A stretch of DNA of 64,000 nt, taken from positions 35,529,328-35,593,327 of the forward strand of contig NC_091146.1 in NCBI RefSeq assembly GCF_041381155.1. Reading direction: 5' to 3'. The notes beneath the pieces are model-generated. The model had not been told where the DNA came from, searched no databases, and saw only the letters and a program-made list of their open reading frames with translations. This document shows positions 6,601 to 49,489 of the stretch, one piece after another (within the stretch, counting starts at the first letter, position 1; the number at the start of each line of letters is the position of its first letter). Origin of the DNA: Argopecten irradians (lineage: Eukaryota > Mollusca > Bivalvia > Pectinida > Pectinidae). The translations under genes were made by a program, and so were the position numbers.

Positions 6601-9600
6601 AACAGCATAAGCCTCACTTAATTGTCCCTTTTATAAATGGTACTGATCAAGTTTCATGAACTTTCCTAAGGAATCCCTTAACTTAAATCTCTTCATAGGA
6701 AAGCATTACATTTTTTAAGGAAGGCTCCTTAACGTAAGATTTTTTCCTTAACTTCTGTAATGCTTTCTTAAGGGGAATTTTAAGTTAAGAAATTCCTTAA
6801 TAGTACCGTGGGATTGGATTGGGTCGATCATCGGTGACCAGGTAGCTCAGTCTGTAGAGCAATCGGCTAGTGTTTGGAGGGTTCCGGGTTCGAATCCCGA
6901 TCTTGCCACAACTCATATATTCTACTCTCCTATTACCATGTTAATGTTCACAAACTGGGCCATGGAGGCAGGCTGTTCCAATTGTAGATAGTTCTTTGAA
7001 AAATGATAGTTGTGGTTTTGTTCTAAATGTAATTGTTTGCAAGGAGTTCTGGTGTGCATGTCTGGTAAGGCCAGATGAAGTGGAAAGCAAATCTTAACTT
7101 TGACATGGACAATTTTGTGGAAAGTAGACAGCGTTCAGTTATCTGTCAGTGTTGAAGTATGTCACCAATACTAGAGATGAAACATAGGAAATAGACAAAA
7201 AATTCTAAATTTAAGTACAGGTTGGGTTGACCAGTCCCGGTAAAATTTCCCACCTGACCAGCCGAATTCCTATCTCCAGATTGAAGTATATCTCATCACA
7301 GATTGTGTTTACTCTGTTATAGAACTAACTTTCTCTCAAACCTACACGTGTAATACTGGCTGGTCTCGGGCATTACACTCATGTCGCCTGAAGCTGTGTT
7401 GTATACCTACATATGCAATAAAGCCTCGTGACATCACAGCGTCAACAAAATTACTATTTTCTCAGTACAATTTTAACTTTTTTTTCCCCCAGAAACTATG
7501 CTGGGTTTACTTTTAAAAGATACAAACAACCATATTTGCATTGAAAATATCACACAATTATCATGCATGGAGAATAGAGTTGCAGTTGCATTTTTTTTCT
7601 AATATATTTTAAAACGGTGGAAAATCATAGAAGTAAAATTGCAATAAAACGTTGGAGTATGAGAGAAAATACTCTTTCATACATGATATGAAGGATAGGG
7701 GTATTCTATCCTCGGGATCACAAAATGTTGTTAAACTCTTGGCAATCCTCAGGTTTTACAACATTTTGTGACCCTCTGGTAGAATTTCCCTATCCTTCAA
7801 TAAAAGAGTCTTATAGTACTTACCCACGAGTGGCTAGGTAGCGGGCGGCGGAGCTGTTTCGGGCGATGCTCCCCGCAGGAGATATATGATCAGTAGTCAC
7901 AGAGTCACCAAGGTTCAGCAGCACACAGGCATCTTTTAATCCTGTCTGGGTTGGTAACTCTTTTGTCTGAGGAGGGAGAAATGTTACATTATAATCTGTG
8001 TGGGTCTGACAGTAACTCTTTTGTCTGAGGAGGGAGAAATATAACATTATAATCTGTCTGGTTTGTAACTCTTTTGTATGAGGAGGGAGAAATGTAACAT
8101 AATAATCTGTCTGGGTTGGTAACTCTTTTGTCTGAGGAGGGAGAAATATAACATTATAATCTGTCTGGTTTGTAACTCTTTTGTATGAGGAGGGAGAAAT
8201 GTTACATTATAATCTGTCTGGGTTGGTAACTCTTTTGTCTGAGGAGGGAGAAATATTTATTAACTTGAATAGATTTTTTATGTTATGGAGATATAACACA
8301 AAAATCTGAGTGTACTCTAAATAAACCGCGAAGCGGTTTATGATGAGAGTACACTCAGATTTTTGTGTTATATCTCCATAACATAAAAAATCTATTCAAA
8401 TTAATCCTTATAATTCAATTTACTAAAGATAATCTCTTCAACATTTAAAATTTATTTTGGGACTCTTTGTCTATAAAATTATTACGCCGTCATCTCAGCC
8501 AATCAGAAGCGACGTTACAAACGGCGACGCCATTTTTTCCTTTATGGGCTGATAAAGTAAATTTTTAGAATAGCCAATGAAAATGCTCGTAACAAACAAA
8601 AATGAATTATAATGTTATAATCTGTCTGGTTTGTAACTCTTTTGTATGAGGAGGGAGAAATGTTACATTATAATCTGTCTGGGTCGGTAACTCTTTTGTC
8701 TGAGGAGGGAGAAATATAACATTATAATCTGTCTGGGTTGGTAACTCTTTTGTATGAGGAGGGAGAAATGTTACATTATAATCTGTGTGGGTTAGTAACT
8801 CTTTTTGTATGAGGAGGGAGAAATGTAACATAATAATCTGTCTGGGTTGGTAACTCTTTTGTCTGAGGAGGAAGAAATCTAACATTATAATCTGTTCGAT
8901 TTATAACTCTTTTGTCTGAGAAGAGAGAAATACATCCACTACGGGAGATATACCGACCCACTTAACATAGACACACAAACCCACTTACCATAGTCTCAAA
9001 GAAGGGTGGTGATTTGATGTAGGTGGACTTTGAGTCCCATGGGTATAGGATATCTGATGGAGCTTCTAAGGCATTCCAGCGTTTGTTACCAGCCTGAAAA
9101 GAAATTTCTGTGTCATTGAAATAAGCTCAATGGTTAGGTATGGAAAGGACATTTAGATGATTTTTCAACATCAAACAAGACCAATGACAAATCTAGTTAT
9201 TGCATAAATGGAGCCATTGGATTAAGCCACTCGCTTTTCAGGGGCACCTGCCCGACCATGTTGGTTTTCTCTAAGCACTCCGGTTTCCTCCCACTCTAAG
9301 ACCTCTTGCACATTTCGAATCCATCAGGACCATCAAAAAGATTTGTATAAGTTATATAACTTGTTTCACAAGTTTATTAATAATATATTAACATCTCATT
9401 GACCTTGTCACCCCTGACCTTGTCTCTCCTGACCTTTTCACCCCTGACCAACAGAAGACATCAAGATTGTTGCAGTAATTTAAGATTATCATATTCCTTT
9501 AAGAGTGAATACAGAATTTGAGCAAGATTGGTCAAATACTATATATAAGTTTATACAGTGTATATGATTCAACTATTTCGGAATATGTACTAAAATACAA

Positions 9601-12600
9601 TGCTACATAACATCTGTTTATCATATCGACAATAGTATTATATTCTGTTTATCATACAGACACTATTATTATATTCTGTTTATCATACAGTCACTAGTAT
9701 TATATTCTGTTTATCATACAGTCACTAGTATTATATTCTGTTTATCATACAGTCACTAGTTTTATATTCTATTTATCATACAGTCACTAGTATTATATTA
9801 TGTTTATCATACAGTCACTAGTATCATATTCTGTTTATCATACAGCCACTGGTATTATATTCTGTTTATCATACAGTCACTAGAATTATATTCTGTTTAT
9901 CATACAGCCAGTAGTACAATATTCTGTTTATCATACAGTCACTAGTATTATATTCTGTTTATCATACAGTTACTAGTATTATATTCTGTTTATCATACAG
10001 TCACTAGTATTATATTCTGTTTATCATACAGTTACTAGTATTATATTCTGTTTATCATACAGACACTAGTATTATATTCTGTTTATCACAGTCACTAGTA
10101 TTATATTCTGTTTATCATACAGTCACTAGTATAATATTCTGTTTATCATACAGTTACTAGTATTATATTCTGTTTATCATACAGACACTAGTATTATATT
10201 CTGTTTATACACAGTCACTAGTATTATTTCTGTTTATCATACAGTACTAGTATATATTCTGTTTATCATACAGCCACTAGTATTATATTCTGTTTATCAT
10301 ACAGTCACTAGTATTATATTCTGTTTATCATACAGTCACTAGTATTATATTCTGTTTATCATACAGTCACTAGTATTATATTCTGTTTATCATACAGTCA
10401 CTAGTATTATATTCTGTTTATCATACAGTCACTAGTATTATATTCTGTTTATCATACAGTCACTAGTATTATATTCTGTTTATCATACAGTCACTAGTAT
10501 TATATTCTGTTTATCATACAGTCACTAGTATTATATTCTGTTTATCATACAGTCACTAGTATTATATTCTGTTTATCATAGTCACTAGTATTATATTCTG
10601 TTTATCATACAGCCACTAGTATTATATTCTGTTTATCATAGAGTCACTAGTATTATATTCTGTTTATCATACAGTCACTAGTATTATATTCTGTTTATCA
10701 TACAGTCACTAGTATTATATTCTGTTTATCATACAGTCACTAGTATTATATTCTGTTTTATATAATATTCTGTTTATCATACAGTCACTAGTATTATATT
10801 CTGTTTATCATACAGTCACTAGTATTATATTCTGTTTATCATATAGTCACTAGTATTATATTCTGTTTATCATACAGTCACTAGTATTATATTCTGTTTA
10901 TCATACAGTCACTAGTATTATATTCTGTTTATCATACAGTCACAAGTATTATATTCTGTTTATCATACAGCCACTAGTATAATATTCTGTTTATCATACA
11001 GTCAAGGGTACAGCAATATTTTGTGAGCCAACAAAGGACATTTGATCAAATACCTGGTCCTGAATTATGGTACAAAGAAAGTTGAAATATAGAGTTTTTA
11101 TAATTATATATATGACAATTTTATAACTCCTGTCCCGGGGTACTTACTGTGATTCTAGAGTACACGTCTGTGAACATGGCAGGAACAACAAACTGCTTCT
11201 CTACCTCCTACAAAAAATCAAAGTACTGAAAGTACTGTAAGATAACACATGGCAGGTACAAACAATCAAAGTACTGAAAGTACCGTAAGATAACACATGA
11301 CAGGTACAAACAATCAAAGTACTGAAAGTACTGTAAGATAACACATGGCAGGTACAAACAATCAAAGTACTGAAAGTACCGTAAGATAACACATGGCAGG
11401 TACAAACATATCCTCAATACTCCAGGGGTTCCTATCACTTACGATCCCTACTAGCCTGGACTATCTCATAGCAAAACTGGAGGTAACAGAACAAAACTGG
11501 TAATTTAATCCTTTGATGCACATCAAAAGAGCCATATAACAGTACACTGTGGTTGACTGTAGCTTTGAATTTGGGAGTCACCTGGTCTGTGATTGGTTCA
11601 GACTTTTTCCTCTGAGCTGCCTTCAGTTTTACTATAAGATAGTCCAGGGGTATAGAGATCGGAACCCCTTGAGTATCAAGGATGGTACAAACAATCAAAG
11701 TACTGAAAGTACTATAATATTAAACACTAAAACATAGCTGATGGCAGTAAAGACACCCTGTTGCTCTACCTCGAACAAACAAACGCTTTACATTAACAGA
11801 CATTTTCTGATCAATTTCTGAAAATTCTGCTTTACATCTTACTTATAGCTTTTGTCTTCAGGCAAGCTATAGATATAGTGGAGCACATACATGAAACCTA
11901 GGAAGCAAATCTTGGCCAGATCAAGGTTCAGATTTTTTTATCATTTTATCAGATCGCAGGAACTGAGGATCTATTTATAGAACCTGTGATCTTGAGATTT
12001 GACCTATGCAGACTTACCTGGATTTCTTCTCGCGTCGGCCAAATATCCCTGAGAAACACGTCCTTTCCTTCACTATTAGTTCCTAAATATACAAGAGAAT
12101 TAACATATGAGAAACTTATTTCATATCGGACTAAAACCCAAAAAGAAATGAACATGCTACAGGCCTAATATAATGTACTTGGGTCAATTATTTTAGGACA
12201 AGATGTTTTTTTGCTTAATATTTTACTCCTTTGAACTTTAATGAAGGTCAAGGTCAATCATTTGTATGAACATTATAGTTATTCAGCTAAGCATAATACA
12301 GGCCCTATATCTAGGTTTCTAGGCCTATAAATCAACTCTCTTGTAACCATCTTTTAACCATCTGGCCCTGTTACACACTGTACCCACCTAGAGCCTGTGT
12401 TTCAAAATCAATCAGCACAGTTCCTGCCAGAGCGTAGGCTATAACCAGCGGTGGGGACGCGAGGTAGTTTGCTCGAGTCAGTGGATGGATTCGACCTTCA
12501 AAGTTGCGATTCCCAGACAGCACACCACATGCTACTAAGTCATTCTGTTGGAAATACAGAGGATTCCGCTTATTTGAATAAGTCATTTTCCAGAAGAAAA

Positions 12601-15600
12601 TATGCAAATAACCGGAGTATTCGAATAGGCGGAGATAACATTTTGCATCTTCGTTTGACCCCACACATATGTATGTGAACAGGCAAATAGATATCATTTC
12701 GTTCACTTGACAAATACGTAAATTATTTACACTTAAAATAATAAACAAGTAGTTCTTAATCGATTTTAATTGTTAAATAACAAAAAATATTCCAAAATTA
12801 GATTCTTGGTTACGTTAGATCGACATGTGAATCTTTGAGAAACAGCTTAACGATCGATGTCAAATGCAATAACTAAACAGGATTGAATTTGTGTCTGCAA
12901 TTCTGAACATGAATAATAAATAAATTTACGTACATATAATAATTTACGTTTGAAAAAACCTGGCAAAATGATCTTACGATCGTGATTAAACTTCAAAGTG
13001 CCGATCAACTAGATCTAGTAGTGTTGTTTTTACACATGTGTATGAATTCGAAAATGGCGGCAGGTGATGAAGCCATGCGTTCACTGGACCTAAATGTGTT
13101 TTGAGAATTCTTCCTGTATTGTTGATCGATACGGCGAATAGCTTGATAACTGATAACATTTCAGAAATTAATGCATATTCAAGTAGCAATGAAACAATGT
13201 AGCAAGTATCTTTTGTATCCTACATACTGTACGAAACTTGCGGTAGTCATTGCACACCGACTTTGCATGCTTTTACGTCTCGTTCAACGAGACGCTTGAT
13301 ACGCACATGTCTGTCGTAGTCAACAAGACTCTGGTTGAATGAGACAACGAGAATGGCGATTGTTGTAAGGAAGCATGGTTTCTCCAACCGATCGTGAACT
13401 AAGGTACGTTACGTTAATAAATAAACATATTTGAAAGTGCAAATGCTTTAATTAGATGTTTGAGTCAGTGATTATACTAAAGTAATGATCAACCGCTGCT
13501 GATGTAAATCGTAACAGCGTCGAATACCTTTGCAGATTCATGCATAAAATAACAAGCCATACGATAACGTTAATCTGTCACCATGATGATTTCTAGTAAA
13601 AGCGAAGTATCTTGAAACATATATCGGCGAATTTCGCTAAAAATATATTGCAAAATTGAAAAATATTCTATTTTATTTTCAGAATTTCCCAAATATTTTA
13701 TTCAAATAACCGGAGGTCATGTAAAAGTCTATTCAAATACACGGAGTTGAAAAACAAAGATAAAGAAGGAAAAAATTTTATGCAAATAACAGAAATATTC
13801 AAATAACCGTTATTCAATTATGTGGAGTCCTCTGTACAATGGATATTCACTGTTCACAAAGGTTTAATAAAACTTTAATAATTTCTAATACTTATGCATT
13901 CCAATAAACATTCAATAACTGTTAAGGTCCCGAACAACATGCCAGATATTGTGTAGACTTTTCTATGACTTCAGATTCGACTCAAGAAAATTTATAAATT
14001 TTCTGTTTCCTTATAGATAGTGAATCACCTTTCTACTGCATTCAAAACTGGATTGGAAAGTGGGTCACTGTTACCTAATATAGACAGTGACTCATCATTT
14101 CTATGGCCTCCGACACACGACTCGGTAAGTGGGTCACTGTTACCTCATATAGACAGTGACTCACTTATTCTATGGCCTCCGGCACAAACTCAGGAACTAG
14201 TTCACTGTTACCTAATATAGATAGTGACTCACCTTTTCTATGGCCTCTGACAGAGACCCAGGAACTAGGTCACTGTTACCTAATATAGACAGTGACTCAC
14301 CTTTTCTATGGCCTCTGACACAGACTCGGGAACTAGGTCACTGTTACCTAATATAGAGAGTGACTCACCTTTTCTATGGCCTCTGACACAGCCTCGGGAA
14401 GTGGGCCGCTGTTACCTATACATGTCATGCAGCCATAACCCACAATATCAAATCTGCAAGTAAAGTTGAATATACATCACAATTCTGACAGGTAACTATG
14501 AACTCCAAACCATCAAAATTCATCTATCATACAATTAACAAATTTTTTTTTTCTAATTAATTAAATACTTTAATAGGTGCTTACTTAACGTTTCGTATTT
14601 AAGAATTGATGTCACTATTTTTTAATTTCATTGGGATATGAAAGAAATTTTGTTTGCAAACCGTGTGAATCTGCATAGTAATCAAATTAAACATTATGGA
14701 GATATCTTTCTGGATTTTTGTGAGCTATTATTTGTGTTCTTTTAAATATTAAGAAAATATCAATGTCAGATACTCACAATAGAGCTGTAGGCTTATTTTC
14801 ACGATTTGAATCCATACAACTTTCACAGTGTTATTATTTTTTGCAATGGACACACTCTCAAGACTTTTAACAACAAAGTTCATACATGAATAAAGTATTA
14901 CGCACGAAGGAGGGGTTTTCGCAATCAAATGACCTTCATGGAATTCACAGCCTAAATTTCCCCCTCGAGTAAATATCCACGTCCACAGTACCAACTCCAA
15001 AATTAATCTAATTCACAGCATTACCTAGTGACATTAGTCAACAAAATTAATATATTAGATCTCTGAAGACGACAAACATCCTTCCTTAACAGTCTTACCC
15101 CAGTTTCTGTAGGAAAGGTGTCACTCCACTTTCCCGCAGGTAATAGGTCACGACCCCGCTGCCGGGCGACAAACTCGTCTTGATGTATGGATTGACGCTA
15201 AGCCCCGCCTCCACAGCCTTCTTGGCTAGAAGCCCCGCCCCCAACATGACTGACGGGTTACTGGTATTGGTACAGCTGGTGATGGCTGCTATGACAACAG
15301 AGCCGTGTGACAATAGGTATTCTTGGTTATCGAAAACAATTGGAGCTTTGACTGACTGGCGGTCGGACGGAATGGCGAACCCCTGCAAAGTCAATAGAGA
15401 GTTACTATAAAGAAATAATGGAATGTAAATTAGTTTGTACAACAAAATTTTATTCCTACTGCATTAAAACCATAAGGACTTCTTGCTTGTTCAGTTTAAT
15501 ACTGATAATATATATTTCCAAATTTAAGTCAAAAATGTCTTTTTCAGATTTCTTATTTAAATGTATTTTATTAGCACACACTCTAATAGCGGGGTCAGCC

Positions 15601-18600
15601 GGACACTAAATGTTTCAATGGATAGTTATACTGTGAATTCTTCACGTTTATTTTCGTTGTGGCTCAATTAGAGTTTACGTGGATTCTAAAATTTTACATT
15701 TTCGTTAATGCAAATCACTTACAAATGAATGTGTGCAGACACTTTCTATGAAGACCTCACTTATTACTGAAAACGTAATATATTTTAAAATACACAGTCT
15801 TATTTGAAACCTGTGCATGTCACCTGTATTGCAATGGTTGATCTCGTTAGTCAAGTTATTTCACCTTACGCTACTAAGCATTTATCTGTGTTTGAATCTA
15901 GAGTCGGTAACTAGAAGCCAGTGTTTTTATACAGACTTTTTGTGTCCAACGACTAAACAATGTGTTATCGTGTCACATTGATAGAGTCAAGACAGCGTGG
16001 ATATACTCAATCAATTATTTTCGAAACAATTACATGTAATCAATCTTACGGACCAGATGAAAGGCGTGGTGGCGAAAAGATGAATCTTCCAAGGATATAT
16101 GTCAACCTCCATGTAAATTTTCTGAAAATTATTTTCTCATTTTGTGCCCACTTTTAATTGTTTGAAGACGATATTATGGCTTGTTCCAACCTTTTGAAAG
16201 CTTGTTAATCATAATTGCTTGGTCCCCGAATAATATTTCGTACCTGGAAAAATACAGATATGTATTGTAGGTGCAATTTAATTGTTTAATCATCCTAACA
16301 AATGAAAAGGTGAACGCATATTGCTTTAAATAAAATTTTACTATTTTACATGAACAAATGGTAAATGGTATATATATGTTTTCGTGGGTTGAACCGCTGT
16401 AAAACTCAATCAAAAATACTGACCTTTTTAAAGGCCCACCCTCTCTATAACGCGGGACACTTTTGCCCTTAAATTATACACAGATAATACTATATTTCCA
16501 AATTTAAGTCAAAAATGTCTTTTTCAAATTTCTTTGATATTTTAACAATTGGATGTTTCAATGGATAGTTATATAATAAATCTGACCTTCTTACCCATCC
16601 TTATCAATTTGAACTGTAATGATGGGTTTGGTCTGATTTTGTTAAGTCAAGTGATCAGGCAGTCTTTTAAGCTTGTCAAACTTGTTGTTGGTGACCTGTA
16701 AGTCTTGACCTTTGCACCCTGAAGCTGACCTTTTCTGTGATTTATGACCTTACCTTTTAAATCTTCCTTTTCTGGTAACCTCCTACTATGTCTTAATTTT
16801 GCTGGTGACTTATGACCTTACTGTCAACCTTCTCTATGACCTTAGTGTAAAGTTTATTTTTGTTGGTGAACTATGACCTTACCTAAGTCTACCTTATCTG
16901 TGACCTATGACCTTACCTTGAAGTCGACCTTCTCTGTGACCCATGACTTTACTGTTAAGTCGATCCTGGTTGGTGACTTATGACTTTACCTTGAAGTCGA
17001 CCTCTATGACCTATGACCTTACCTTGAAGCCGACCTCTGTGACCTATGACCTTACCTTGAAGTCGACTTTCTCTGGAACATATAACTTATTGTAAAGTCT
17101 ACCCTGGTTGGTGACCTATGACCTTACCTTCAGCCGACCTTCTCTGTGACCTATGACCTTACCTTGAAGCCGACCTTGTTGTTAAGACAAGCCTGGAAGT
17201 CTGTCTTCATGTCCGTCACCGCCACCTTATCATGGGGTCGCTTGGGGCCAGAACAACAGGACACAATGGTGGAAAGGTCAAGCTCCACAATCTGTTAAAG
17301 TTAAACATAAAAGTCAAACAATTATCCTAATCTACACTTATTGCACAAATATTTTCATCTTGTGTTTTTATTCTTTTTTTTAAGTGACTTTGATCTTTTA
17401 CTATATCTTGATATTGCTGATACATTTTTATCATTGGTTGGTCGAGGTTGAAGACCATCTTTTGTCTACCAGGACATTGTAACTAATGATAAAAGGTAAT
17501 ACCTGTGAGAAAACAGGATCCTGTGAGGGGTCACCATAGTTACGGAACATGTGAACAGCATTGAGGTATTTCTCTATTTGTTGTATCTTGTCGTCATGAC
17601 GACCTGTAACACAGATTAATACCAAGATTAAACATTGACAAGATTAATACAGATTTATAAAGCAAGGAAAAACAATCTAGTATACTTTTTTTCAGAATAC
17701 ATCCTCGTTAAGCTGTGTGTAGTATAATGTTTGGGCCATAAAGGCCTCCAACTTATAACTGTATAGTTACTTTTATTAACCCAAACCAGCAAGAGTAAAG
17801 CGACTTTTGTCTAGAACTACTTATATCACTCTTACAGTAGTGTGTCTACCCAATCAGAATCATGATCTTGTCTTCAACACTTTTACTAACTCCACAGTGG
17901 TACATATTACGTTTAGTTAAACTTAAAGATGCTCCACCGCCGACAGAGCATAAATGATATTCATCATTTGAACAACACTTGGTGTTTAATAATGTATATA
18001 TATGTCTAATTAACACAAAAATAATACAAAATAACTTATTTTGCCTTTGATGCATGAGCAATCAGTACTACATTCTATATAGGATATAGTGCCACGGAAT
18101 TTTTTCGGGATGCAATTCATTATTTTTTACATTTTCAACTTGAAGTAAAATTAGAAGCTCAAACTTTTCAATGTTGGTAATGGTGTAAATTAAGTAACTT
18201 TTGTAACTAAAGAATAATACTAAATTGTCTGCTCCTGGTTTTAATAGTGAAAAAATATCATTTTTTTCAGCGGTGGAGCATCTTTAAGTGGTTTACACTA
18301 CGAAACCTAAACTAATAATTAGTTAAATTTCTGTATGAATATACTACTGTATGTTTATTACTACGAAACCTAAACTAATAATTAGTTAAATTTTCTGTAT
18401 GTATATTACTACGAAACCTAAACTAACTATGATTAGTTAAATTTCTGTATGTATATTACTACGAAACCAAAAACCAATAATTAGTTAAATTTCTGTATGT
18501 ATATTACTACGAAACCTAAACTAATGATTAGTTAAATTTCTGTATGTATATTGTATGAATTTTCTTTTCATATATATTCACTACAAAACTGTTAACCAAC

Positions 18601-21600
18601 ATTCTTTCGTAGAGCTCTATAAAATTGGATGATTTCCATTTCAAAACAAGGTGGCGAAGATTATAAGACTCTTTCATTAGTGGATATGAAGGATAGGGAT
18701 ATTCTACCCGAGGGTCACAAAATGTAGTAAAACCCGAGGCTTGCCACTTATTTTTCTTTCATACCTCGATGTTATATTGCAATTTTTACAGATATAATAT
18801 CCTGCCATTTTGAAATAAATTCGAAGAAATCGATGACTGGAAGTCATTTTCCATACATGAAAAATTACGTGAAATTTTCATAACAAATTCCGTTGTTTGC
18901 ATCCTTTATAGTAAAACCAGTCATATTTGTGAAAAAAAGTTAAAACTTTTACCGGGGAAATAGAGATTAGTTGACGCCGTGACGTCATGAGGCTTTATTG
19001 ATTGGGTAGCAATGCAATACAGCCTCAGGAGACATGAGTGTATTGCCCTGGACCAGCCAGTATTACACTCGTAGGTATGAAAGAAAAATATTTGCGGATT
19101 TAACAATTAAATGATAATTCCTATCAATATAAATGATGTAGATATTAATTTGCAGAGATAAACTTTAGTGAATTTACTTGGATCGTGAAATTCGCGAAAA
19201 TAAATCACACGCAAAAGAAAGTTGGTTTGCAGTATTAAGTTCAAATTCTATGTATATTGGTCTAACCTGTCTGACGAAGATATTCCAGACTTTTCCCGTC
19301 CACAGGGAAAAACCCGATCGTGGCTCCATACTCTGGACACATGTTGGAGATCGTGGCACGGTCAGCGATGGACAGGTGCTCTACACCAGAGCCGAAAAAT
19401 TCAACAAATTTACCAACAACGCCAATCTGTCGTAGATTCTGAAAGGACACATTTAATGTATTTTTTATTAGTTCGGAGACATAATAATAAAACACTTCCC
19501 GTATTCATTGTACATTAACATCCAGGCTGCATAAAAAGTGTTATAAAGAGGGACACTTATCAATGAACCAAAATATAAGTTGTTGAAGAAAAAAAGTCAG
19601 TTATATCTTAACTTCATTTCATATTAATCTGTCTGAGTAAACATACATATGCTTTCTTTCCTTATTATGTCATGATTCACACGTGAAAATCTCCTAAGTG
19701 AAGATAATACAGGATACCATGTCGATGTTATAAGAACATCATTAAATCAATGGGATGGGAGGCGGGTTTATAAACTTTCATCTCCTTCATTTTCCTAAAG
19801 AGTGGAAGAATAGCGGAGGGATGTGAATGTGTCATGAAGTATATGAAAACATGTTTCTATAACAGATTAATGTGTCACAAGTACAAAAAAAAACCAATGA
19901 GGTAAGATGTCAGATGGGTGAGGACACCTGTCTACAAGTCTATCATTTTGTAGCTGCTGGCGTTACCTTGGTGATGGTCAGTACAACGTCTGTGGAAGTA
20001 ACCAAAGGATTGACCACTCCGGTCAGTTTGTATCCAACAACTTGTGGTAGTACCATGCTGATAGCCTGTCCCAACATGACCGCCTCAGCTTCTATACCTC
20101 CCACACCTGTAATCAAGTAAATTAGACAAATCTATATAAACATGACCACATCAGCCTCTATACCCCCTCCCTCTCCAAACACACACACCTGTGAAATTTC
20201 AACAAAATCAATAAATCTGTTCACAAGTTATCATCAGGAAACCAACAGACTATCACACAGAGACAAACATGATAGTCCCCTCCGTACTAATAATCAGATA
20301 TGAGTCTGTCAGGTGGACAGAGAGATCTCAAACCTTGGAAAACACTGTCAACACTCAGCAAGACTCAAGTTAACCAGCAAAAAGCTTTTCCTTGCCTAAG
20401 ATATCCCTTGGTTGCTTGGGAAAAGATTACTCTATCTTACACAAGGGGGTGTAAGACATCTCACACGCAATACGTGACGTCATCAATACATGCGACATAA
20501 TTGCAGCGTGCATTTCAATGAAGTCATCAATTTTGACGCATAAAAATGTTCCTGTGATAATGGCACGATGAAAAAGCTGAAAAGCAATGGAAATTCCATA
20601 TTTTTTCTTCTAAGTATGAGAGAAAAAGAATCAACTATGGATCTGTCAATTGGACAGGGATATCTCTACCCTTGTGAAAGATTTTTGGCCGTCAACCCTC
20701 AGCAAGCCTCGGATTGACAAGCCAAAATCTTTCACTTGAGATATCTCTGTCCAATTGACAGACCTATGTAAGATTCTAATAGTCCATTTGAAGGACCAAA
20801 ATGTAAGATTTTATAAGTCATACATACCCCAGCCGACGACGCCGAGACCGTTGATCATCGTGGTGTGAGAATCAGTACCAACCAGACTGTCTGGGTAGAG
20901 GATGTTACCAGAGTCAAACACAACCTTGGCCAGATACTCGAGGTTCACCTGGTGGACGATTCCAGAGCCAGGGGGGACAATCATCATGTTCTGTAAGGCT
21001 TTAGCTCCCCACTGTAAGAAAATTCAGTTAAAATCTTTATTTGCTACTATTTATTGCTTTCTAATACGTCTGTACAAGGATGAGACATTTTCTTGAATAT
21101 TGAGGAATCTTTGCACTGGTTTTATATTACTTGATTTATCTTTCTTAGATTTGGGTAAGAAAATTACATGATTTAATTGATTTTCGCAGAATATCACGAT
21201 GTAACTAACACACTAACACAATCACATGACATCTTGATATAATTAATCCTGTTATTATCTGTAAAAGTTTACCTCGAGCTCGAGGAACAAAAACAATGCT
21301 GTGTTCCTCTTAAACTCACTTCACCTCCTCTCAAACCCATGCTTACCTTGAGGAACACAAAGCATTCCTTGTTCCTCTCAAACCCATGCTTACCTTGAGA
21401 AACACAAAGCGTTCCTTGTACCTCTCAAACCCATGCTTACCTTGAGGAACACAAAACGTTCCTTGTTCCTCTCAAATTCCAGTTCCTGATTTTTCTCTAA
21501 TGCATCGACACTGCAATATATATACAATATTAAATGATAATATCACTTAAAGTTTATTTCGTAAATAGAGGATATTACATGAGTGGTTATGTAACATAAA

Positions 21601-24600: not shown

Positions 24601-27600
24601 CCCCAAAAAAAAAATATGTATACGCTTACACAAAAAACAAAACGAAATTAAAACAAGAATAAAACAACAAAAATTTACACAATCGAAAATTAAGCCATCA
24701 AAATCAAATATTGAACGCAAGTTTTTTAGCTCTCCTATCTTTGGAGATAGAAATCTGTACTAACCCTGCCTGCTGCTGTTGCGGGCAAATATACGGCTGC
24801 TTTTTTTGCAGGGAACACTGCGAGCAAGAGGTTGACCCTAACCTTTGACATGACCTTTGACCTCCACCAGGGTTGGGAGAGTTCAACAAACTACAAGAGA
24901 AACCAGACTTAAGATTACATTCAAAGGGCCAAACACACAACCTACTTATTAACATGACCCATTCACCCCTGGAATGCCATAATGAACTGTTCCTGTTCAA
25001 GAGTTGGGAAAGTTCAAGAGTGTCTCTAGGGGTGGAAGGGTTGTATAGTAAATTTTAAATTCAATTAGGATGATCATATTTTTACAATGTCAAACTTGAC
25101 CCTCATTAGTTCAAGAATAACCTGGAAAACTTTACCTTGATTAACTCAAAATTATAAAACTTGATGGCCCTATTTCATCTAAGAATTGGTACTGACCCAA
25201 GCTGTTCCCATATATATTCAAAATATTCCAGGGCACCTGTTACTGTAAGTCCATGCCGGTTGATTGTCATCAGTCCTACATTGGTACACTTATGATTCAT
25301 TAGCATCCTTTCAAATTGGACAAGCAGATTGTTAAAATTGTTTTATATGAGAATGTACGGAGTTCTAGAAGAATGAAGAAGTTTATATAGTACAGTGAAC
25401 TCCACATTTCACAAAGTCGGATTTAATTTGTTATCACAATCTATCAATTTTTATAAAGTATTCCGGGGTTTGGATTGACGTTCTATTAACTGCCCGGGTC
25501 AAGTAAGGACATGCCAGTTTTGATGACGGGAGCAAAACCGGAGCACTTTGAGAAAAACCCCCGACCAGCAATCAATACCTGGTAACTACCCTCGATGGGA
25601 TTCAAACTCGCGACCTAGAGGTGGAGCTTGAGGGCTTGTGGTAATATGTGGAGGCATCTTAACCACTCAGCCACTGCACTCCTACAAATGTTCTGTGGTA
25701 GGGAAGGAAAAACGTACCAGTATGTAGAGTTATTGTCAGTTCTTTAGGCACTTGAGGATGTGATATTAACTCACGTTGCCATTTTTTTGTACCACTATTA
25801 ACCTATTAAACTATTGCAATCTATTCAAAAATTATACTATCAGAGTTAATCTATGAAAGTTTATCTCCGCAAATTAATATCTACACCATATATATATATA
25901 ATTAATTTTTCTTTGTTTTCATACCAAATCTGGTTTTCTGATTGGCCAACATTTTTTTTGCATACCACTATGAAAAAAAATCCAAGAATGGCGTGAAACC
26001 CCAACGTTATCGTGACGCCACAATAGAGACTTTGACTTTGCGTATTGATTCAGAAAAAAAAATCCCTTGAACAACCACTATCATGTTACATTTAAAAATA
26101 CTTCATTTTATCAATTAGTGTATAAAATCAATTTTAAGTATTGATGTCACTATTTTTTTAATTTTATCGGGTAATGAAAAAAAAAATTGTTTGCAAACTT
26201 TTGTGAGAATCTGCAATGCGGATTCACACAGTTTGCAAACAATTTTTTTTTATACCCTGATGAAATTAAAATATAGTGATCACATCAATGCTTAATGAAA
26301 GAAATTTCCATTGAAGTTTTAAATCTGCAAATATTAATCTTTGCCAACTCGTTTTTGAAATGGAAATGCAAAATTTAGTATCTGCGAAAGAAATTTGGTT
26401 GACAGTATTTCTGTTCATTTATGGCTGTGTTTGAATCCATCAAAGTTCATGAAATTAAGAAATGTTTCGAACTTTAGGAATGATCAAAAGAAAATTTCTC
26501 GGTAACACATAGTGCTGAGTAATAACTTAGATGCCAAATTTATATTTGTATTCGCTGTAACATAAACCTCCTTTTGGATTTCTAATTTCTATGAAGCGTT
26601 TTTATTGGTTCACTATATTCAAGATAATGTAAATACTGCAATTATAGACATGACGCCCTAAAACTTTATACAAAACCGGAAAACCATAAAGTCTTATAAA
26701 CATTCCAAAGTTATCACTGAAACTTGAAAACAAAGTAACAAAGAAAACCTTTTCCTTTTCACAAAAGAAGTTAAACTTCATATTTTAGAAAAAGAAAAAA
26801 AAAATGCAATTTCTCCAAGTAAAATGGGACTTTGAAGAAATTTTAGATTGAGAAAAAGGTCAGTTACCGACCCCTAAAAAGGCTCTAGAGTATAGTTTAG
26901 GGTTTACTCACCTACGAGCTACGTCCACCTGTATTGAGTGGTCAATGACAAGGTCGACCGGACAAACAGGGTTAATTTTGTTGGGGTCACCTTCTAGTCG
27001 CTTGACCGCATCACGCATCGCAGCGAAGTCCACTACTGCAGGAACACCTCTGTAACATTATGCATAATTTGCATATACCTACTACATATTCAAATTAATT
27101 TTGTATTAATGTGTAATTTGCATATACCTACTACATATTCAAATTAATTTTGTATTAATGTGTAATTTGCATATACCTACTACATATTCAAATTAATTTT
27201 GTATTAATGTGTAATTTGCATATACCTACCGTATTTTTTGCGCATATAGTGCGCACTTTTTTTCATAATTTATCAAGTGAAAAGTTGGGGGTGCGCACTA
27301 TACGCAGGTACAAGGCATGGCCAGGTCCTGGGTTATGATCACCGACCGGCAGGTCCCGCGAGCTATGCAGTAACATTTTGTACACGTTGTCGTGAAATAA
27401 TTATGATTAAATACTTGGATCTTTAAGTCAGTGGTCAATGCATATATTCAATATAAAAGGAAAACATTTCTTGAAATTTTTATCTTTAATTCCTTGAAAG
27501 TTCGTTTTAAGAGCACGTGTGTTCATGACCGGATTCATGTTACGATCGTGAATATTCAGTAAGGTATCTCCAAATCTAAATGGCTAAATGAATATAGCCT

Positions 27601-30600
27601 GGAGCTTGAAACGATGTATAAGTGTGTAATTAATTCGTCACACTAGACAGATTACCTTATAAATAAGTTTCTCCAGCATGTGAAAACTTTTGAACTTGCA
27701 AATGTTTACGGAAGTGAGTGTAATCCCACATGCAGAGCCAGCAAATTAAATACGAAACTAAAACCTTCCTACTTTAACACTGACCAATCGGCACTATAAA
27801 TGATGGTATGACTGTAAAATTTACTCTTATTACTATCTTTTGAAATGGTTCTGTAAGATATCATCCTGATTTCAATACTAATTGAAATAATTGAGAATAC
27901 GGAAGCGTGCAGTCAGTAATCAAATATGGCGGCCACCTGTGGTTGATTAGCCTACTCAGTCAGCTTTCCAGCTAATATCTTGGACAATGATTAAATCTAA
28001 ATGCCTATCAGATACACAATAGACTTGATTGATACCACTTGGAATTACACAAGGTATGGTTAATTATTTGATTGTAAAAACATGTACATCGTTGCTGATA
28101 TCCTCATTATAGTGTCACCGGCAATTCACAAGCTAACTAGGCCTGCCGTTGTGTAAACAAAGTGTCAATCATCGTGTCAAACTCCTCTCGCCAGTTAATT
28201 TTAATGAACAGAAGGTTGTTTTAAGCACTGATAAACAATAAGAACCGTTTGATATTTTGTTCTTTAAAAGTGTTTGGAGGCAATGCAAAATGTTGTGATC
28301 GAAGATACAAAAACTGAGATTTTTTTTTTGCAAATATTTTTTTTTTCCAAAATGAAACTAAAAAACGTACCTGCGCACTATACGCGGGTGCGCAGTATAC
28401 GCGCAAAAATACAGTACTACATATTCAAATTAATTTTGTATTAATGTGTAATTTGCATATACCTACTACATATTCAAATCCAAGTTGTCAAACGTGAGGT
28501 TTTGAGGAGTGGTCGACAATTTAATCTATCCTGATGGTTAAGATCTTCTGTCTTACCCCTAAGAGGGTGAATGCTTCTTTTTCTCTTACCCTGTGCACCA
28601 CTTTGTGTCTCTTATAATAATGTGTCACTTTTCCAAGCAAGGATGTCGTCATGACCTCAACAATGTTATCAATATATGCAGCACCCTAGTCAACATCATT
28701 GTGACAATGTGATACAAATGTTACTAAACAAATGAAATTTCATCATTTTTCATTTCCTTATTTGGATCTAACCCACTTACGTGAAATCCTGTAGATGTTA
28801 TCCAACCCCTTCAGTTCTTTCAGTACTTTGACAATATTTGGATCTAAACCACTTACGTGAAATCCTGTAGTATTACCCTGGACGGTTTGAAGGGTATTTC
28901 CACACTTTTGGCCTGATTTTCCTCCCAGCCAAGAATATTGTCTACGTCGGCACGTTTGACCTGGAAGCCATCACAGTTTCTGACAGCCGATTCCAGCAAC
29001 ACTCGTATAGAAAAGGGCAGTTTGTCTGTAAACATTATCCAGTAAAATTAGCACAAGAGAAAAAACTAAATATTTAATAATATAAATATAACATTAATTT
29101 CAATTCAGATTTTCCAATATTGTTTTTAAATGCATTAAATAAAATCATATTTCATGTTTTCATTTTTGTATTTGCACTTAATAAAGATAATGTGAATGAA
29201 CTTGTCACCTGGAATGGTAGGGGGCACTCACTGGATTGCCAGGTTTAGGTGGAGAAGAAAAGCCACAGTACCCAGAGAAAAAACACCCACCAGAGGTCAG
29301 TACCTGACAACTGCCCCACATGTGATTAAAAATTATGACTAGAAAATAGAGAGCTTGTGGTATAAGGTCTGGACATCTTAACCGCTTGGCCAACATGTCC
29401 CTAAATAAGGAAAGGGGCACTTATGGTATGAGGGGCCGTGGTGGCCGAGTGGTTATAGGATGTCTAGACATATTACCGTAATCCCCCCCCCCCCTTCTGG
29501 GTTGCCAGTTTGAAGCCCATGTAGGGCAGTTGCCAGGTACTGGTCAATAATTTTTCTCTGGACACTTTTAAAAAAGTTTTCATCCACCATCAAATTAAAC
29601 CTAGCACGTCCTTAAATGACCCTGGATGTAATAACTTAACAAACCACATCAGATAATATGATACGTGCCTTAGCTTCTCAGTAGTTTGTAATGTTGTACC
29701 AGAGTTGTTTATTAGGTTTGAAGCTATAATTAAGCAACTGCCAATCTCCTCAAAAATACTGTTTTTGAGACAGGAGAATCTTACTATTGTAGCAATGGAA
29801 AATGAAATTCATTGAACTCATTACATAACTTGATGCAACATTCCCCACAGAATTATTGAACTTTTGTATTACAGAGTTACAACTTACAGAGTTATTTGTT
29901 AGAAGGGTATATTAGGCATTTATGTCCCCGATGTCAGTGTGATATGAAGGTTTATTTCCCCTCATATGTAATATTTCCCTCGGGCGACATTAATTTTTTA
30001 TTGCACCGAAAATTCACGATTCGATACGTTGGGTTTAATATTACTTAGATTTGCGATGAGTAAAAAAATTAGTGTTTACGCTTCGTCCGTCATTGTTGTA
30101 CAATCTGAAGGGAAGATAACTCCGTGTGAAAGATGGGTGGTCAGCATATGGGCACATGTCCCAGGGAAATGCGATGTTTTATTTCCCCCGCGGGAAATAC
30201 GACATTTTATTTCACTATATCATGTAATGCGTTTCAACTAATCACAGACACTGTTATAAACATGAGGTATAATAATATCCATTATCTGTCTATGGATATG
30301 ACTTAACATAGCGATATGTAGACTTATTATAGCGATATGTAGACTTATTATAGCGATATGTAGACTTATCATAGCGATATGTAGACTTATCATAGCGATA
30401 TGTAGACTTATCATAGCGATATGTAGACTTATCATAGTGATGTGTAGACTTACCATAGTGATTTGTAGACTTACCATAGTGATGTGTAGACTTACCATAG
30501 TGATATGTAGACTTACCATAGTGATATGTAGACTTACCATAGTGATATGTAGACTTACCATAGTGATATGTAGACTTACCATAGTGATGTGTAGACTTAC

Positions 30601-33600
30601 CATAGTGATGTGTAGACTTACCATAGTGATGTGTAGACTTACCATAGTGATGTGTAGACTTACCATAGTGATGTAGATTACCATAGTGATGTGTAGACTT
30701 ACCATAGTGATGTGTAGACTTACATAGTGATGTGTAGACTTACCATAGTGATGTGTAGACTTACCATAGTGATGTGTAGACTTACCATAGTGATGTGTAG
30801 ACTTACCATAGTGATATGTAGACTTACCATAGTGATGTGTAGACTTACCATAGTGATGTGTAGACTTACCATAGTGATATGTAGACTTACCATAGTGATG
30901 TGTAGACTTACCATAGTGATGTGTAGACTTACCATAGTGATGTGTAGACTTACCATAGTGATGTGTAGACTTACCATAGTGATATGTAGACTTACCATAG
31001 TGATGTGTAGACTTACCATAGTGATATGTAGACTTACCATAGTGATATGTAGACTTACCATAGTGATGTGTAGACTTACCCAAGATATTAATTTATCATA
31101 GCGATATGTAGACTTACCATAGTGATATGTAGACTTACCATAGTGATGTGTTGACTTACCATAGTGATGTGTAGACTTACCATAGTGATGTGTAGACTTA
31201 CCATAGTGATGTGTAGACTTACCATAGTGATGTGTAGACTTACCATAGTGATGTGTAGACTTACCATAGTGATGTGTAGACTTACCATAGTGATGTGTAG
31301 ACTTACCATAGCGATATATAGACTTACCATAGTGATATGTAGACTTACCATAGTGATGTGTAGACTTACCATAGCGATATATAGACTTACCATAGTGATA
31401 TGTAGACTTACCATAGTGATGTGTAGACTTACCATAGTGATATATAGACTTACCATAGTGATATGTAGACTTACCATAGTGATATGTAGACTTACCATAG
31501 TGATATGTAGACTTACCACAGAGATATGTAGACTTACCATAGTGATATGTAGACTTACCATAGCGATATGTAGACTTACCATAGTGATATGTAGACTTAC
31601 CACAGAGATATGTAGACTTACCATAGTGATGTGTAGACTTACCATAGCGATATGTAGACTTACCATAGTGATATGTAAACTTACCATAGTGATATGTAGA
31701 CTTACCACAGTGATGTGTGGACTTACCATAGTGATGTATAGACTTAATTACCACAGAGATATGTAGACTTACCATAGCGATATGTAGACTTACCATAGTG
31801 ATGTGTAGACTTAATTACCACAGAGATATGTAGACTTACCATAGCGATATGTAGACTTACCATAGTGATGTGTAGACTTAATTACCACAGAGATATGTAG
31901 ACTTACCATAGCGGCTGTCATTGAGAGCCGTCAGATTGAAGAATGAGAAATCTTTTCCGTCTATGGATATGCTCTCCTTAATCTGACTGAAACCTGAAAA
32001 TATGATGATGTTATCATGAGTGCTTATCATTTAGTTTTGCTTTGGTAGTCAAGGAATGTGATTAATATTCATCTTATCAGTAAAGGGAGGAAATCTCTTG
32101 ACCATTATAAGGGAATTCTCCCCTTTGTTAGTATTTAAAGTCATTTTATGATGTTTCAGATTACATCTGACATTATTTGTTTCTCGTAAATATTGTTTCA
32201 ATCAGAGAAATCTCAAAAAGAGAAGAATCACATCCCTGGTAGTCTTTAAATACAACAATAATTGTGTATTTGTTTATATATAACACAGCTTAACATTCTG
32301 CCAGGTTCCGTCCAGCATAGTCTATACAAAGTATGAAACTTTGGTGCACAAGACTCAGAAAGCCCATATGCTATATGGTTTCATGTCCTAGGGCTGGACT
32401 GGGTCCAACAACAACTGATCATGAAGTGACCATTGCTGAATGCTAAATGAACAATCATTGTCAATGTATATCATATTTACTCCAACAACAACTGAAGTGA
32501 CCATTGCTGAATGCTAAATGAACAATCATTGTCAATGTATATCATATTTACTGTAATAGATATTCAGAGAGACATTTAGTGTGTATCACAGTATGCTGTG
32601 CCTGTTTATATTTTAGTTCTTGTTGTTTTGAATGATATGATGTGATATTGTTAATGTTGAATGAATTATTTATTGAACTGATCTTTGGTATTGTGTTTTG
32701 TTTGCAGACATTTTAAGTACATCCTGTACCTAGTTACTTAATCACATAAAAAGATGGTCTGAGAGACAGTTTCTATTCCAGAGACATAAGATTTAAACAC
32801 ATTTGAAGATGTCACATGGTACGCCGAGAAAAGTTGGTGAATCTGATTTTTTACCCAGAGCTAGCCGTGGAACTGAAGCGACCAAGTATTTTGATCAAGA
32901 TCAGTAGAACAAATAATCTAGTTAGTGTCTGGAGGTCCTAGATTCAAGTCCTTGTCTCATCTGGTCCCTACATTTTCTCCTTCGCTGTTTTGTTACAGGT
33001 TCAAGTATATGCTCAAAGACTTTGAGAAAAGATTGAGTATTTAGCCTCATTATTGTAGTAGAATTAGACTTCGCTAATCATCAGTAGCCATGCCTGCATA
33101 ATTGGTAGCTATAGAGCATCCGGCTTGACTTATGAGGTCCCAGGTTTGAGACCAGATCTGGCCGCAACATATACATTTTTTCACCCTTTCTGGCGAAATA
33201 TGAATTTTTTTTTATTGAAATCATCAACTTCCATTATTGTCAAAAACCTCAACTGACTTGAGAAGAATGAACTCTGAAATGATGTCTTCAACTCACTCTA
33301 ATTTCTTTATTTTTGAACCAATTTTCAGAACTCTAATTTCTTTATTTTTGAGACCAAAAAAAAATATGTATGTTTCAGGTACCCCTACCTACCCTAGTTT
33401 TTACCTCCGACCCTACCTATTTTATAACACTTTTTGCTTTAAGTTTATCCAGATAAAGTACAATTATGGTAATGAAAAATAAAAGACTTCTAGCCAGCCT
33501 AAAGCCTAAAAGACAAATTACTTTGTAATGTAGTAATAAAGCAACTCAACCCCTCCCCCACCTCTCCCAAAAAAACTAAAATAAAATAAATTCCTGACCG

Positions 33601-35823: not shown

Positions 35824-38800
35824 GTATTGACTATTATCCAGAGCCTATTCTGTAATACGGGGGTTTCGAGCTCCCAAAACGACGTGGGTAAAGTACAATT
35901 CACCGTCAATTAGTCTATAGGTATTTAGCACGCTGGTACATGTAAGTCAAAGACCCACTATATATAGACTAATATATAGAGAAAGGTATGGAACTTCTCC
36001 GTGACGCAAAATTGGGTAATTTAGTTCAAATTGCTGGGAAAAAAAATATCCAGACCAGATATCTCAACAGTTTCAGTCTTCATTAAAAGTTAAGATGTTA
36101 AACTTCATGATGATAACAAGAAGTCATACTGAACTAGTCTACTTTTTTCACAAACAGCCTCGAAACTTGAGAAATTGACAGTGAATTTCCCTTAGTCAGA
36201 CACGACCGAGAACTTTTTTTGCAAAGGAAAATGTCTACACTGAAAACACGGCAGCCTACAATAACAGGCTTTGACATAAACAAACATCAGGTGAAAACAA
36301 ACGTATTTACTTGTTTGACGCTTCATTCAAATCCCCCTCTCATGATCCTTATGTCGTTTTTCAGCGCTATTAGTTATCCGTGTCAGCTTGACGGCCATTT
36401 TGCCACTTTCTTGAAAGTTATGTTCAGCCTATAATCTCATTGGCAGAGTTAAAACAAACCGGCCATGTGTCTGTTCCCATTTTCTTATAATTATTACAAA
36501 TACAATGTACGATATAATATTACTACTTTGATATACTGTATATCGTGCTTTAATTTTGTGGGTCAATATTTCGCGGTTTCCTATAGAGAGCAAATTCTTG
36601 CAGGTACAATTTCACGGTTCACTTACTCCTATAATTCATTAAAACTATTGTTCTCAGATGGAGGTTTGGTTTACAAATTCATAGTAATTGTTTGTACTTA
36701 TTTACAATGAAATACTGATTATTAAGCCAGTGTTTAGTGAAATTGAGAATATAGCAAAATAAACCATTCACAAAATTCATCTATCCCCAAAATTAATCTA
36801 TCCACGAAATTGAACTATACACAAAAGTAAGCTATTCATGAAATTAACCTGCTATGCAGTAATAGATGATGCTTTGTGTTTCAGAAAAAAGCTAAGAAGA
36901 TAGATGTAGTTAAAGCGATTATCTCCGAAGTACACAGGAAGGAAGGAGCCAGTGGATTTTATCGTGGCTACTTCATCTCCATGGCAGTATATGGCCTTGG
37001 TAGCGCCCTCTGGTGGCCTTTTCAGGAATTTTATAGTTGTAAGTTTTCAAGTGTAGATATAGTGATAATGTTGTTGGTTTTATTAGTTTAACGTCCTATG
37101 AATAGTTATTTAAAGACGTGCCAGGTTTGCTGGTGGAAGAAAGTCAGAATACTCGGAGAAAAATCACCAACAACTGCGCCATATTTGATTCAAACTCGAA
37201 ACCCAGAGGTGTAGGGCTTGTGGTAATTAATATGTTGAGACATTTTAACCACTCGACCACCGCACCATCCCTTAGTGATAAGAATAGTGTTTAAGTGTAA
37301 ATAACAATAATCATAGTAGTGCATATAAATAATTTCTAGACTGTGATAAATAGAACCTTACACTTGTGACTATATGATGTAAAATTTATAGAATTTCTCA
37401 AACAAGGTCAATAATTTCATATGTCACAAGGCTTTAGGCAAGTTGCATATATCAAATAATTTCACAAGTTAATAAATTTCATATTACATAGACATAAGTG
37501 TAAGACTTATATTGATCAAATAACTTTTATCAATGAAACTATAAGCAAAAATTTTAATTCTATCTTTAGAAAACAGAAGAATTCGGCTGATATGGAATGT
37601 AATATTTCCTTCAACCGACACAATCATTTGACATCATTTATTTTATTTTAAATGACGCCATATATAGATATCTGTGATGTCATAAAAATGTTTTGATGTT
37701 TCTCATAACTTTATATCTATCATAACAGATTTGGTTGTTCCGACCTTTCTCAAAGGCTTAGTTCTAATATTATAACAGATTTGGTTGTTCCGACCTTTCT
37801 CAAAGGCTTAATTCTATTATAACAGATTTGGTTGTTCCGACCTTTCTCATAGGCTTAATTCTATTATAACAGATTTGGTTGTTCCGACCTTTCTCATAGG
37901 CTTAATTCTATTCAATATAACAGATTTGGTTGTTCAGACCTTTCTCATAGGCTTAATTCTATTATAACAGATTTGGTTGTCCCGGTCTTTCCCCAATGGG
38001 TTCCCAGAATCCTGTTGGATGGAGTATCCGCATTCCTGTCCGGTTTGACTACTGTTACGATAACCAACTCGATGGAACTGGTCCGTGTCCGAATGCAGGT
38101 AAGTAGTTAAGGCCAAGTATACTACTGGATTCTGCAGACTTCATCGATCCCTATACATATATTAACTGAAACTGGATACAACATGTCACATATGCTTCCA
38201 GTGTCTTATTTTAGGTTATTTTATGTTAAAGATGCTCCAACATCGTCATTTAAAAAGTAGTTACCGGTAGTGTATATATATGTCCAATGAACACAAAATA
38301 TGATATTAAATAAATTATTTTGCTTTTGGTGCATGCTCAATCATTACTTTATTCCATATAGGACATAGTAACAAGGAATTTTTCAAGACACAATTAATTA
38401 TTTTTAATATTTTTTAATTTTATCCGGAAGTAAAATTAGAAGCTCAAACTTTTCAATGGTGGTAATGATGTCAAGTAAGTTACTTTTGTGACTGAAGACA
38501 AATACTTATTTGTCTGCTCCTGTTTTTGATGGAGAAAAAAATACTACTTGTCGGAGATGTAGCATCTTTAAGGTCACTGCTTAGCTAACTTAGCTAAGTT
38601 GATAAAAAGTGTGTACACATCAGGCATAACCTTAGGTATTACTGTTGACTCCTAGATTGTTGTGTTGCTTGCACATTTTCACAATTGTCATTTTTTTGTC
38701 CGTGTAAACTAATTAGATAATGAAACCACCTCCATGCCTTTACCTATTTTAAACTGTGTAAACTGACTGTGTTTTGTAGGTAGGTCGTACAGGGTTTAAA

Positions 38801-41689: not shown

Positions 41690-41790
41690 CCTATCCGGGC
41701 CTCGAACTCACGATCTGCGGCACCCAATCGCCTAGCCGAACATATATGGGCCTTCTACCACTGCGCCACACGCGTTCTCACTCTCACAGC
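41690..41790 (-). mobile_element. tRNA-derived SINE head at the edge of the 41-bp array
   Basis: Minus strand: GTGTGGCGCAGTGGTAGAAG, then GGTGCCGCAGATCGTGAGTT and CGAGGCCCGGATAGG. It has A-box and B-box in tRNA spacing with a long insert. The first array unit follows directly after GCCACACGCG. Confidence 0.6.
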
Positions 41791-48695: not shown

Positions 48696-48709
48696 TTCTG
48701 GCGACGAGG

Positions 48710-49480: not shown

Positions 49481-49489
49481 AAAAAGGGG

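What the first reader, a model, noticed from the sequence alone, without database searches (positions are those of the whole stretch)
7824..37990. Minisatellites repeatedly born on exon-intron junctions in two neighbouring genes
At seven junctions (ACO1 exons 2, 3, 5, 10, 12 donors; exon 17 acceptor; SLC25A44 exon 3 acceptor) the intron-side tandem array has a unit that includes exon bases plus the splice site itself. Unit lengths differ (21, 76, 47, about 35, 68, 54 and 47 bp) and sequences are unrelated, so these are independent events. Both genes and both splice-site types are hit. The real site is always the copy at the exon edge. Rough reasoning: about a dozen arrays and about 45 junctions in 38 kb would place one or two array ends near a junction by chance, not seven that include exon sequence. 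Tandem duplication of AGGT-containing exon ends is an established idea for intron gain (proto-splice-site duplication); a junction-seeded expansion leaving rows of decoy sites is, to my knowledge, not described as a recurrent genomic pattern.
Basis: partly seen in the sequence, partly recalled or inferred. Interest (0 to 1): 0.88.

Follow-up and report, generated by a model that had tools for sequence, protein, structure and literature searches.

The report
Minisatellites copying exon-intron junctions
Several short tandem-repeat arrays in two neighbouring animal genes are copies of an exon edge together with its splice site; the pattern is real here, but the same thing has been described in amphioxus under the name "mirages".

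Summary
All seven named junctions carry intron-side repeats whose unit contains exon bases plus the splice site. A degenerate eighth case, the ACO1 exon 7 acceptor, was missed. The spliced ACO1 model aligns to a cytoplasmic aconitase of known structure over 869 residues without a gap.

Excess over chance depends on the null. Free placement of footprints: none (6 seen, 5.2 expected, p 0.41). Exons kept nearly intact: 6 seen, 1.5-2.5 expected, p 0.002-0.03 by choice of arrays. One duplication per array: 0.8-1.0 expected, p about 1e-4. This is one post-hoc window without genome, RNA or orthologues.

[quoted passage not shown]). Best reading: neutral tandem duplication across the junction; the exon-edge site goes on being spliced and the copies pile up in the intron. 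If the host is a mollusc (suspected from recall only), the known range of mirages widens.

The parts
30300..31911 (-). Array on the ACO1 exon 2 donor (exon 31993-31907), unit 21 bp, 76 intronic copies, about 5-7 exon bp in the unit
   Evidence: TRF; exon model; copies; 68 donor-like decoys, 59 with the authentic 9-mer
28759..28870 (-). Duplication of the ACO1 exon 3 donor (exon 29025-28857), 36-bp repeat 76 bp apart, 14 exon bp, one extra copy
   Evidence: not in the TRF list
21326..21476 (-). Array on the ACO1 exon 5 donor (exon 21510-21441), unit 47 bp, 36 exon bp; a further degenerate copy lies just beyond its intron end
20139..20192 (-). Degenerate copy of the ACO1 exon 7 acceptor and exon 7 start (exon 20106-19967); decoy AG at 20190-20189; not in the finding
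16866..17177 (-). Array on the ACO1 exon 10 donor (exon 17291-17163), unit about 35 bp, 14-15 exon bp, 9 intronic copies
   Evidence: weaker copies reach about 16732
14011..14418 (-). Array on the ACO1 exon 12 donor (exon 14453-14369), unit 68 bp, 50 exon bp, 5 intronic copies, the farthest the most diverged
7937..8932 (-). Array on the ACO1 exon 17 acceptor (exon 7966-7824), unit 53-54 bp, 30-33 exon bp, 11 intronic copies in two blocks separated by 8257-8614
37699..37991 (+). Array on the SLC25A44-like exon 3 acceptor (exon 37971-38098), unit 47 bp, 21 exon bp, 5 intronic copies
   Evidence: mitochondrial-carrier family by Pfam
11209..11408 (-). Array ending at the ACO1 exon 15 acceptor (exon 11207-11148), unit 48 bp; exon bases in the unit not shown
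27065..27229 (-). Array 16 bp from the ACO1 exon 4 acceptor (exon 27049-26912), unit 49 bp; no exon bases shown
8956..8993 (-). 23-bp duplication at the ACO1 exon 16 donor (exon 9093-8989), 5 exon bp; suggestive only

Best explanation
These are mirage-type minisatellites: independent tandem duplications whose segment happened to span an exon-intron junction. Shown here: the repeat unit is exon end plus splice site plus intron start (or the mirror image at acceptors), the copies lie on the intron side, and in ACO1 the single copy at the exon edge keeps the protein in register. Inferred: such a duplication is nearly neutral, because splicing goes on using the site next to the exon, so the extra copies become intron and can expand and decay there, while duplications inside exons are purged. 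Also inferred: duplications form or survive more often near exon edges than deep in introns in this minisatellite-rich region. The mutational step (replication slippage, template switching or unequal exchange) is not identified.
For: 7 of 7 claimed cases confirmed, plus E7. In exon-versus-own-intron alignment, 7 of 44 junctions (E7 among them, E2 not) exceed the 99.9% point of mismatched pairs, 0.04 expected. The exon parts of the exon 3, 5, 7, 10 and 12 units lie in stretches conserved in a cytoplasmic aconitase of known structure, and the 869-residue alignment has no gap, so those exons came first. Among 15 merged arrays of unit 20 bp or more, 6 straddle a junction (1.5 expected, p 0.002) and 9 lie within 40 bp of an exon (2.5 expected, p 0.0001; p 0.0033 or less at each of eight cut-offs from 0 to 150 bp, 0.04 at 300 bp). 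Donor-like decoys abound, yet only 1 of 90 would keep the frame open through the next exon, as expected if they are not used. In the E17 array 5 of 11 copies have CTCAT in place of CTCAG.
Against: Free placement of footprints gives no excess (5.2 expected, 6 seen, p 0.41): about 20% of the region is array, and 24% of 3000 intron pseudo-edges resemble their own flank against 16% (7 of 44) of real exon edges. With 22 arrays, short units included, the signal weakens (overlap p 0.03; p 0.007 at 40 bp, 0.09 at 100 bp; median distance p 0.11). The set was picked after the fact from one window. Identity to the exon-edge copy does not fall significantly with distance in four of five arrays tested (only in E12). 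Percent match within junction arrays does not differ from that of other arrays (p 0.48). No RNA, reads, second haplotype or orthologue was available.
Confidence: 0.68

Rival explanations
1. Chance in a minisatellite-dense region: arrays land anywhere outside exon cores, junctions are simply not spared, and the reader noticed a lucky window. This shares the neutral duplication step with the best explanation and denies only the bias, so the two odds overlap.
For: Free-placement null expects 5.2 and sees 6. Arrays cover 20% of the gene region. Looser edge criteria give only 2-3 fold excess, p 0.002-0.02.
Against: Exon-preserving and per-event nulls give p 0.002-0.03 and about 1e-4. Three more arrays lie within 40 bp of an exon without overlapping it.
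Confidence: 0.27
2. Intron-gain intermediates of the Rogers type: duplication of exonic AGGT proto-splice sites is creating introns or sliding their borders here.
For: Published models tie such duplications to intron gain (PMC3087553, PMC4974935, passages). The E12 unit starts at an exonic AGGTAA, and 4 of its 8 donor-like decoys read TAGGTAACA.
Against: Units contain intron bases with the authentic site, so the intron already existed. In 0 of 21 introns does the donor region resemble the acceptor region beyond mismatched pairs (best p 0.19). The ACO1 model is ungapped against a cytoplasmic aconitase. Relatives could not be checked.
Confidence: 0.04
3. Functional decoys: rows of splice sites regulate splicing or recruit factors to the exon.
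For: Decoy sites often equal the authentic site: in the E2 array 62 of 149 GT sites score at least as high as the real donor.
Against: Only 1 of 90 decoy donors would keep the reading frame. Some copies have lost GT or AG (E2 far end; 5 of 11 E17 copies). Unit lengths and sequences are unrelated.
Confidence: 0.04
4. Assembly artefact: repeated sequence wrongly expanded or misjoined.
For: Amphioxus PGBD5 and BflGb6 arrays differed between assemblies or were misassembled (PMC3902484; PMC3087553).
Against: Copies differ from the exon-edge copy by up to about 30%, and an unrelated stretch with a long inverted repeat lies between the two E17 blocks. Reads could not be checked.
Confidence: 0.03

Closest known systems
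Amphioxus 'mirages' (globin genes BflGb6 and BflGb9; Adh3; also reported for troponin C and PGBD5)
   Same: Minisatellite-like tandem duplications that contain an exon-intron boundary, at both 5' and 3' boundaries, varied unit lengths (10-72 bp in Adh3, 150-160 bp in BflGb6 as quoted in PMC3087553), copies carrying splice signals, several genes in one genome.
   Different: Here at least 8 boundaries in two adjacent genes. Normal splicing and length instability, reported there, are untested here. The host is probably not a cephalochordate (recalled, not shown).
Intron gain by tandem duplication (Rogers 1989 model; potato RdRp case, PMC4974935, passages)
   Same: Tandem duplication near or across a splice site; the potato duplicate also crosses an intron-exon boundary.
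   Different: No new intron is seen here; the copies stay inside existing introns, mostly many copies rather than one.
Ordinary intronic minisatellites of molluscs (27-bp array in abalone TSSK1-like intron 3, PMC6905558, passages)
   Same: Intron minisatellite of similar unit length.
   Different: The passages seen do not say that it includes an exon edge.

Membership tests
Mirage (junction-spanning minisatellite) | Repeat unit includes exon bases, the splice site and intron bases | tested here: met
   for seven junctions; E7 in degenerate form
Mirage (junction-spanning minisatellite) | Both donor and acceptor boundaries affected | tested here: met
   5 donors (E2, E3, E5, E10, E12) and 3 acceptors (E17, carrier exon 3, E7)
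Mirage (junction-spanning minisatellite) | Authentic exon-edge copy keeps the normal transcript | tested here: inconclusive
   ACO1 protein register fits a cytoplasmic aconitase without a gap over 869 residues; no RNA held
Mirage (junction-spanning minisatellite) | Array length varies between haplotypes or tissues | not testable with these tools
   one haplotype only
Mirage (junction-spanning minisatellite) | Found in cephalochordates (the only group named in the passages seen) | not testable with these tools
   no genome is held and no eukaryote collection is on hand; a mollusc host is suspected from a recalled SINE sequence only
Intron gain by tandem duplication | A new intron whose two splice sites come from copies of one segment | tested here: not met
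   0 of 21 introns have donor and acceptor regions alike; whether any intron is new could not be tested without relatives

The most novel reading that the evidence does not exclude
Junction-spanning minisatellites are not a cephalochordate peculiarity but a general class of mutation in minisatellite-rich animal genomes, biased to exon edges by some property of the junction itself, and here, in what is probably a mollusc, they reach 8 or more of 44 junctions in two genes.
Probability: 0.4. Interest if true: 0.66.

Novelty: new member of a known kind. Interest (0 to 1): 0.45.

Why it matters
If exon edges are preferred sites of tandem duplication, intron ends evolve by a route that leaves rows of working-looking splice sites. 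That bears on splice-site choice, on intron-gain models and on gene annotation. The density here, 8 of 44 junctions, makes the idea testable in any good genome of the same group. The phenomenon itself is already in print for amphioxus.

Tried and rejected
Tried and not used as support: a direct-repeat edge scan whose edge criterion also fires inside imperfect arrays; it gives 6-10 seen against 2.2-4.4 by rotation, p 0.002-0.019. The 9 of 44 it reports at scores 15-25 include the exon 15 and exon 4 acceptors, where exon bases are not shown. A gapped alignment meant to show exon bases in the exon 15 array failed (133 of 1000 shuffles as good), although exon 15 and that array share 14 of 15 bases (p 0.004 against mismatched pairs). 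Divergence with distance from the exon, a possible sign of growth from the exon edge: E12 rho -0.9, p 0.04, 5 copies; E2, E10, E17 and the carrier array not significant; E3 and E5 too few copies. Percent match of junction and other arrays does not differ (p 0.48), so a longer life of junction arrays is not supported.

Host: exact searches of prokaryote and viral contigs with a 30-base SINE stretch found nothing, and a text search for 13 of its bases found nothing.

Literature: 10 of 10 searches used. Three asked about molluscs, bivalves or oysters with repeats in introns or at boundaries: they listed 0, 8 and 2 papers. I saw passages of 3 of those 10 (PMC6905558, PMC3510168, PMC5405514), none of which describes the pattern; the other 7 I saw only as a listing. 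Subscription papers are mostly not held. The Adh3 paper (PMC117041) and Hellsten 2011 are not held; what I say of them comes from the citing papers.

Null details: one search used 23 TRF arrays (16 of unit 20 bp or more), kept the two E17 blocks apart, and counted two unresolved edges of carrier exon 1 as junctions, which slightly raises its expectation. Its 10-bp overlap rows see 5 arrays, not 6. The 15 arrays merge the E17 blocks, extend E12 to 14034, and leave out units under 20 bp and the two-copy cases E3 and E7; one search repeats the test with 7 short-unit arrays added (22). The array at 407-472 lies outside the region tested. The donor scan took 28700-28856 for E3, wider than the duplication, and its matrix was built from the same donors.
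Full report
What is there. The window holds an ACO1/IRP1 gene on the - strand, from exon 2 at 31993-31907 down to exon 21 at 624-514, and on the + strand a mitochondrial-carrier gene resembling SLC25A44, exons from 35290 to 38968. No whole genome is held for it. The spliced ACO1 protein (884 residues, exons 2-21) matches PDB chain 3sn2_A, cytoplasmic aconitate hydratase (rabbit, by recall), at 1479 bits; query 15-883 pairs with 38-906 with no gap. The 19 introns between exons 2 and 21 are thus placed so that nothing is gained or lost, and the copy at the exon edge is the one that fits the protein. This shows register, not splicing: no RNA was available. Exon 1 of ACO1 and the donor of carrier exon 1 were not found.

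The junction arrays. At 7 of 7 claimed junctions the intron-side repeat contains exon bases and the splice site: donors of exons 2, 3, 5, 10 and 12, the acceptor of exon 17, and the acceptor of carrier exon 3. Exon parts range from about 5-7 bp (exon 2) to 50 bp (exon 12). Intronic copies at 62% identity or more number 76, 1, 3, 9, 5, 11 and 5 in that order. Each of the 7 units finds only its own array in the window. Three other facts came out. First, exon 7 has a degenerate copy of its acceptor and of bases 5-34 of the exon in the intron before it; it was not in the finding. Second, arrays end 2 bp from exon 15, 16 bp from exon 4 and 38 bp from carrier exon 2, without shown exon bases. Third, the donor of exon 16 has a weak 23-bp duplication, which I do not count.

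Chance. Aligning the last 60 exon bases with the adjoining 400 intron bases, 7 of 44 junctions exceed the 99.9% point of mismatched pairs, where 0.04 is expected; exon 2 is not among the seven because its exon part is too short, and exon 7 is. That rules out chance similarity but not chance placement. For placement I used several nulls. Free placement of 23 TRF footprints expects 5.2 straddling arrays and 6 are seen (p 0.41): arrays fill 20% of the region. This null lets arrays bury whole exons, which real genes cannot bear. With exon overlap held to 60 bp it expects 1.5-1.8 (p 0.003-0.007, 5-bp overlap rows; in the 10-bp rows 5 are seen, p 0.009-0.02). With one unit-length duplication per array it expects 0.84-0.88 (p 0.00005-0.0001, 5-bp rows; 0.00015-0.00025 in the 10-bp rows). 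A uniform edge detector that includes the two-copy cases gives 7 seen, 2.3-2.45 expected, p 0.005. Footprints of the 15 merged arrays with unit 20 bp or more lie nearer to exons than random: 6 overlap (1.5 expected, p 0.002), 9 lie within 40 bp (2.5 expected, p 0.0001), and the median distance is 16 against 298 (p 0.0004). With 7 short-unit arrays added the same test is weaker (overlap p 0.03, 40 bp p 0.007, median p 0.11). I read this as a two- to seven-fold excess that is likely but not established, in a window chosen because the pattern was seen.

Direction and decay. The exon parts of the exon 3, 5, 7, 10 and 12 units lie in stretches conserved in 3sn2_A, so these exons came first; for exon 17 and the carrier exon the repeated residues are poorly conserved and the argument rests on length alone. 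In the exon 12 array all five copies share two changes that the exon lacks, so the copies multiplied among themselves and the exon copy stayed out, much as PMC3087553 describes for cluster boundaries in amphioxus. A 358-bp stretch with a long inverted repeat lies between the two blocks of the exon 17 array; if it is an insert, as I infer, that array is older than it.

Decoys. With a matrix built from 21 donors of these genes (the tested ones included), the five scanned donor stretches hold 90 decoy donors at least as good as the weakest authentic one, in 2.5 kb, against 5.4 per kb in sense-strand intron outside arrays (115 in 21,190 positions). Only 1 of the 90 would keep an open frame through the next exon. 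Rows of decoys are thus real as sequence, and I infer that the gene splices from the exon-edge site. Choice of the site nearest the exon fits exon definition, which is established knowledge and not tested here.

What is known. [quoted passage not shown] PMC3902484 (passages) adds PGBD5 and cites troponin C. PMC4974935 (passages) reports a potato intron gained through a duplication that crosses an intron-exon boundary; here no intron has donor and acceptor regions alike (0 of 21). So this finding is a further set of mirages. Whether the host is outside the cephalochordates is open: the tRNA-SINE copies look to me like those of molluscs, from recall.

Verdict. The pattern is known by name. What would be new is its spread to another phylum and a measured bias to exon edges; neither is proved by this window.

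Noticed in passing
48507-53268: A Ty3/gypsy-type retrotransposon with two identical 190-bp LTRs and a 4-bp CAGG target duplication sits inside a 42-bp-unit satellite array (47727-48506 and 53269-55824), which suggests a very recent insertion.
   Followed up: partly
8257-8614: A 358-bp stretch with a long inverted repeat (149-bp self-match at 93%), like a foldback element, lies between the two blocks of the exon 17 array.
   Followed up: partly
41774-47437: A 41-bp satellite of about 137 copies, 5.7 kb long.
   Followed up: no
23541-23860, 25486-25674, 29237-29401, 29426-29629, 37105-37261: Copies of one tRNA-derived SINE in the introns of both genes.
   Followed up: partly
17990-18288 and 38268-38572: An interspersed repeat, 80% identical, one copy in each gene.
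   Followed up: no
514-38968: 9 of the 16 TRF arrays of unit 20 bp or more in the gene region have units of 47-54 bp, at junctions or not; no explanation sought.
   Followed up: no
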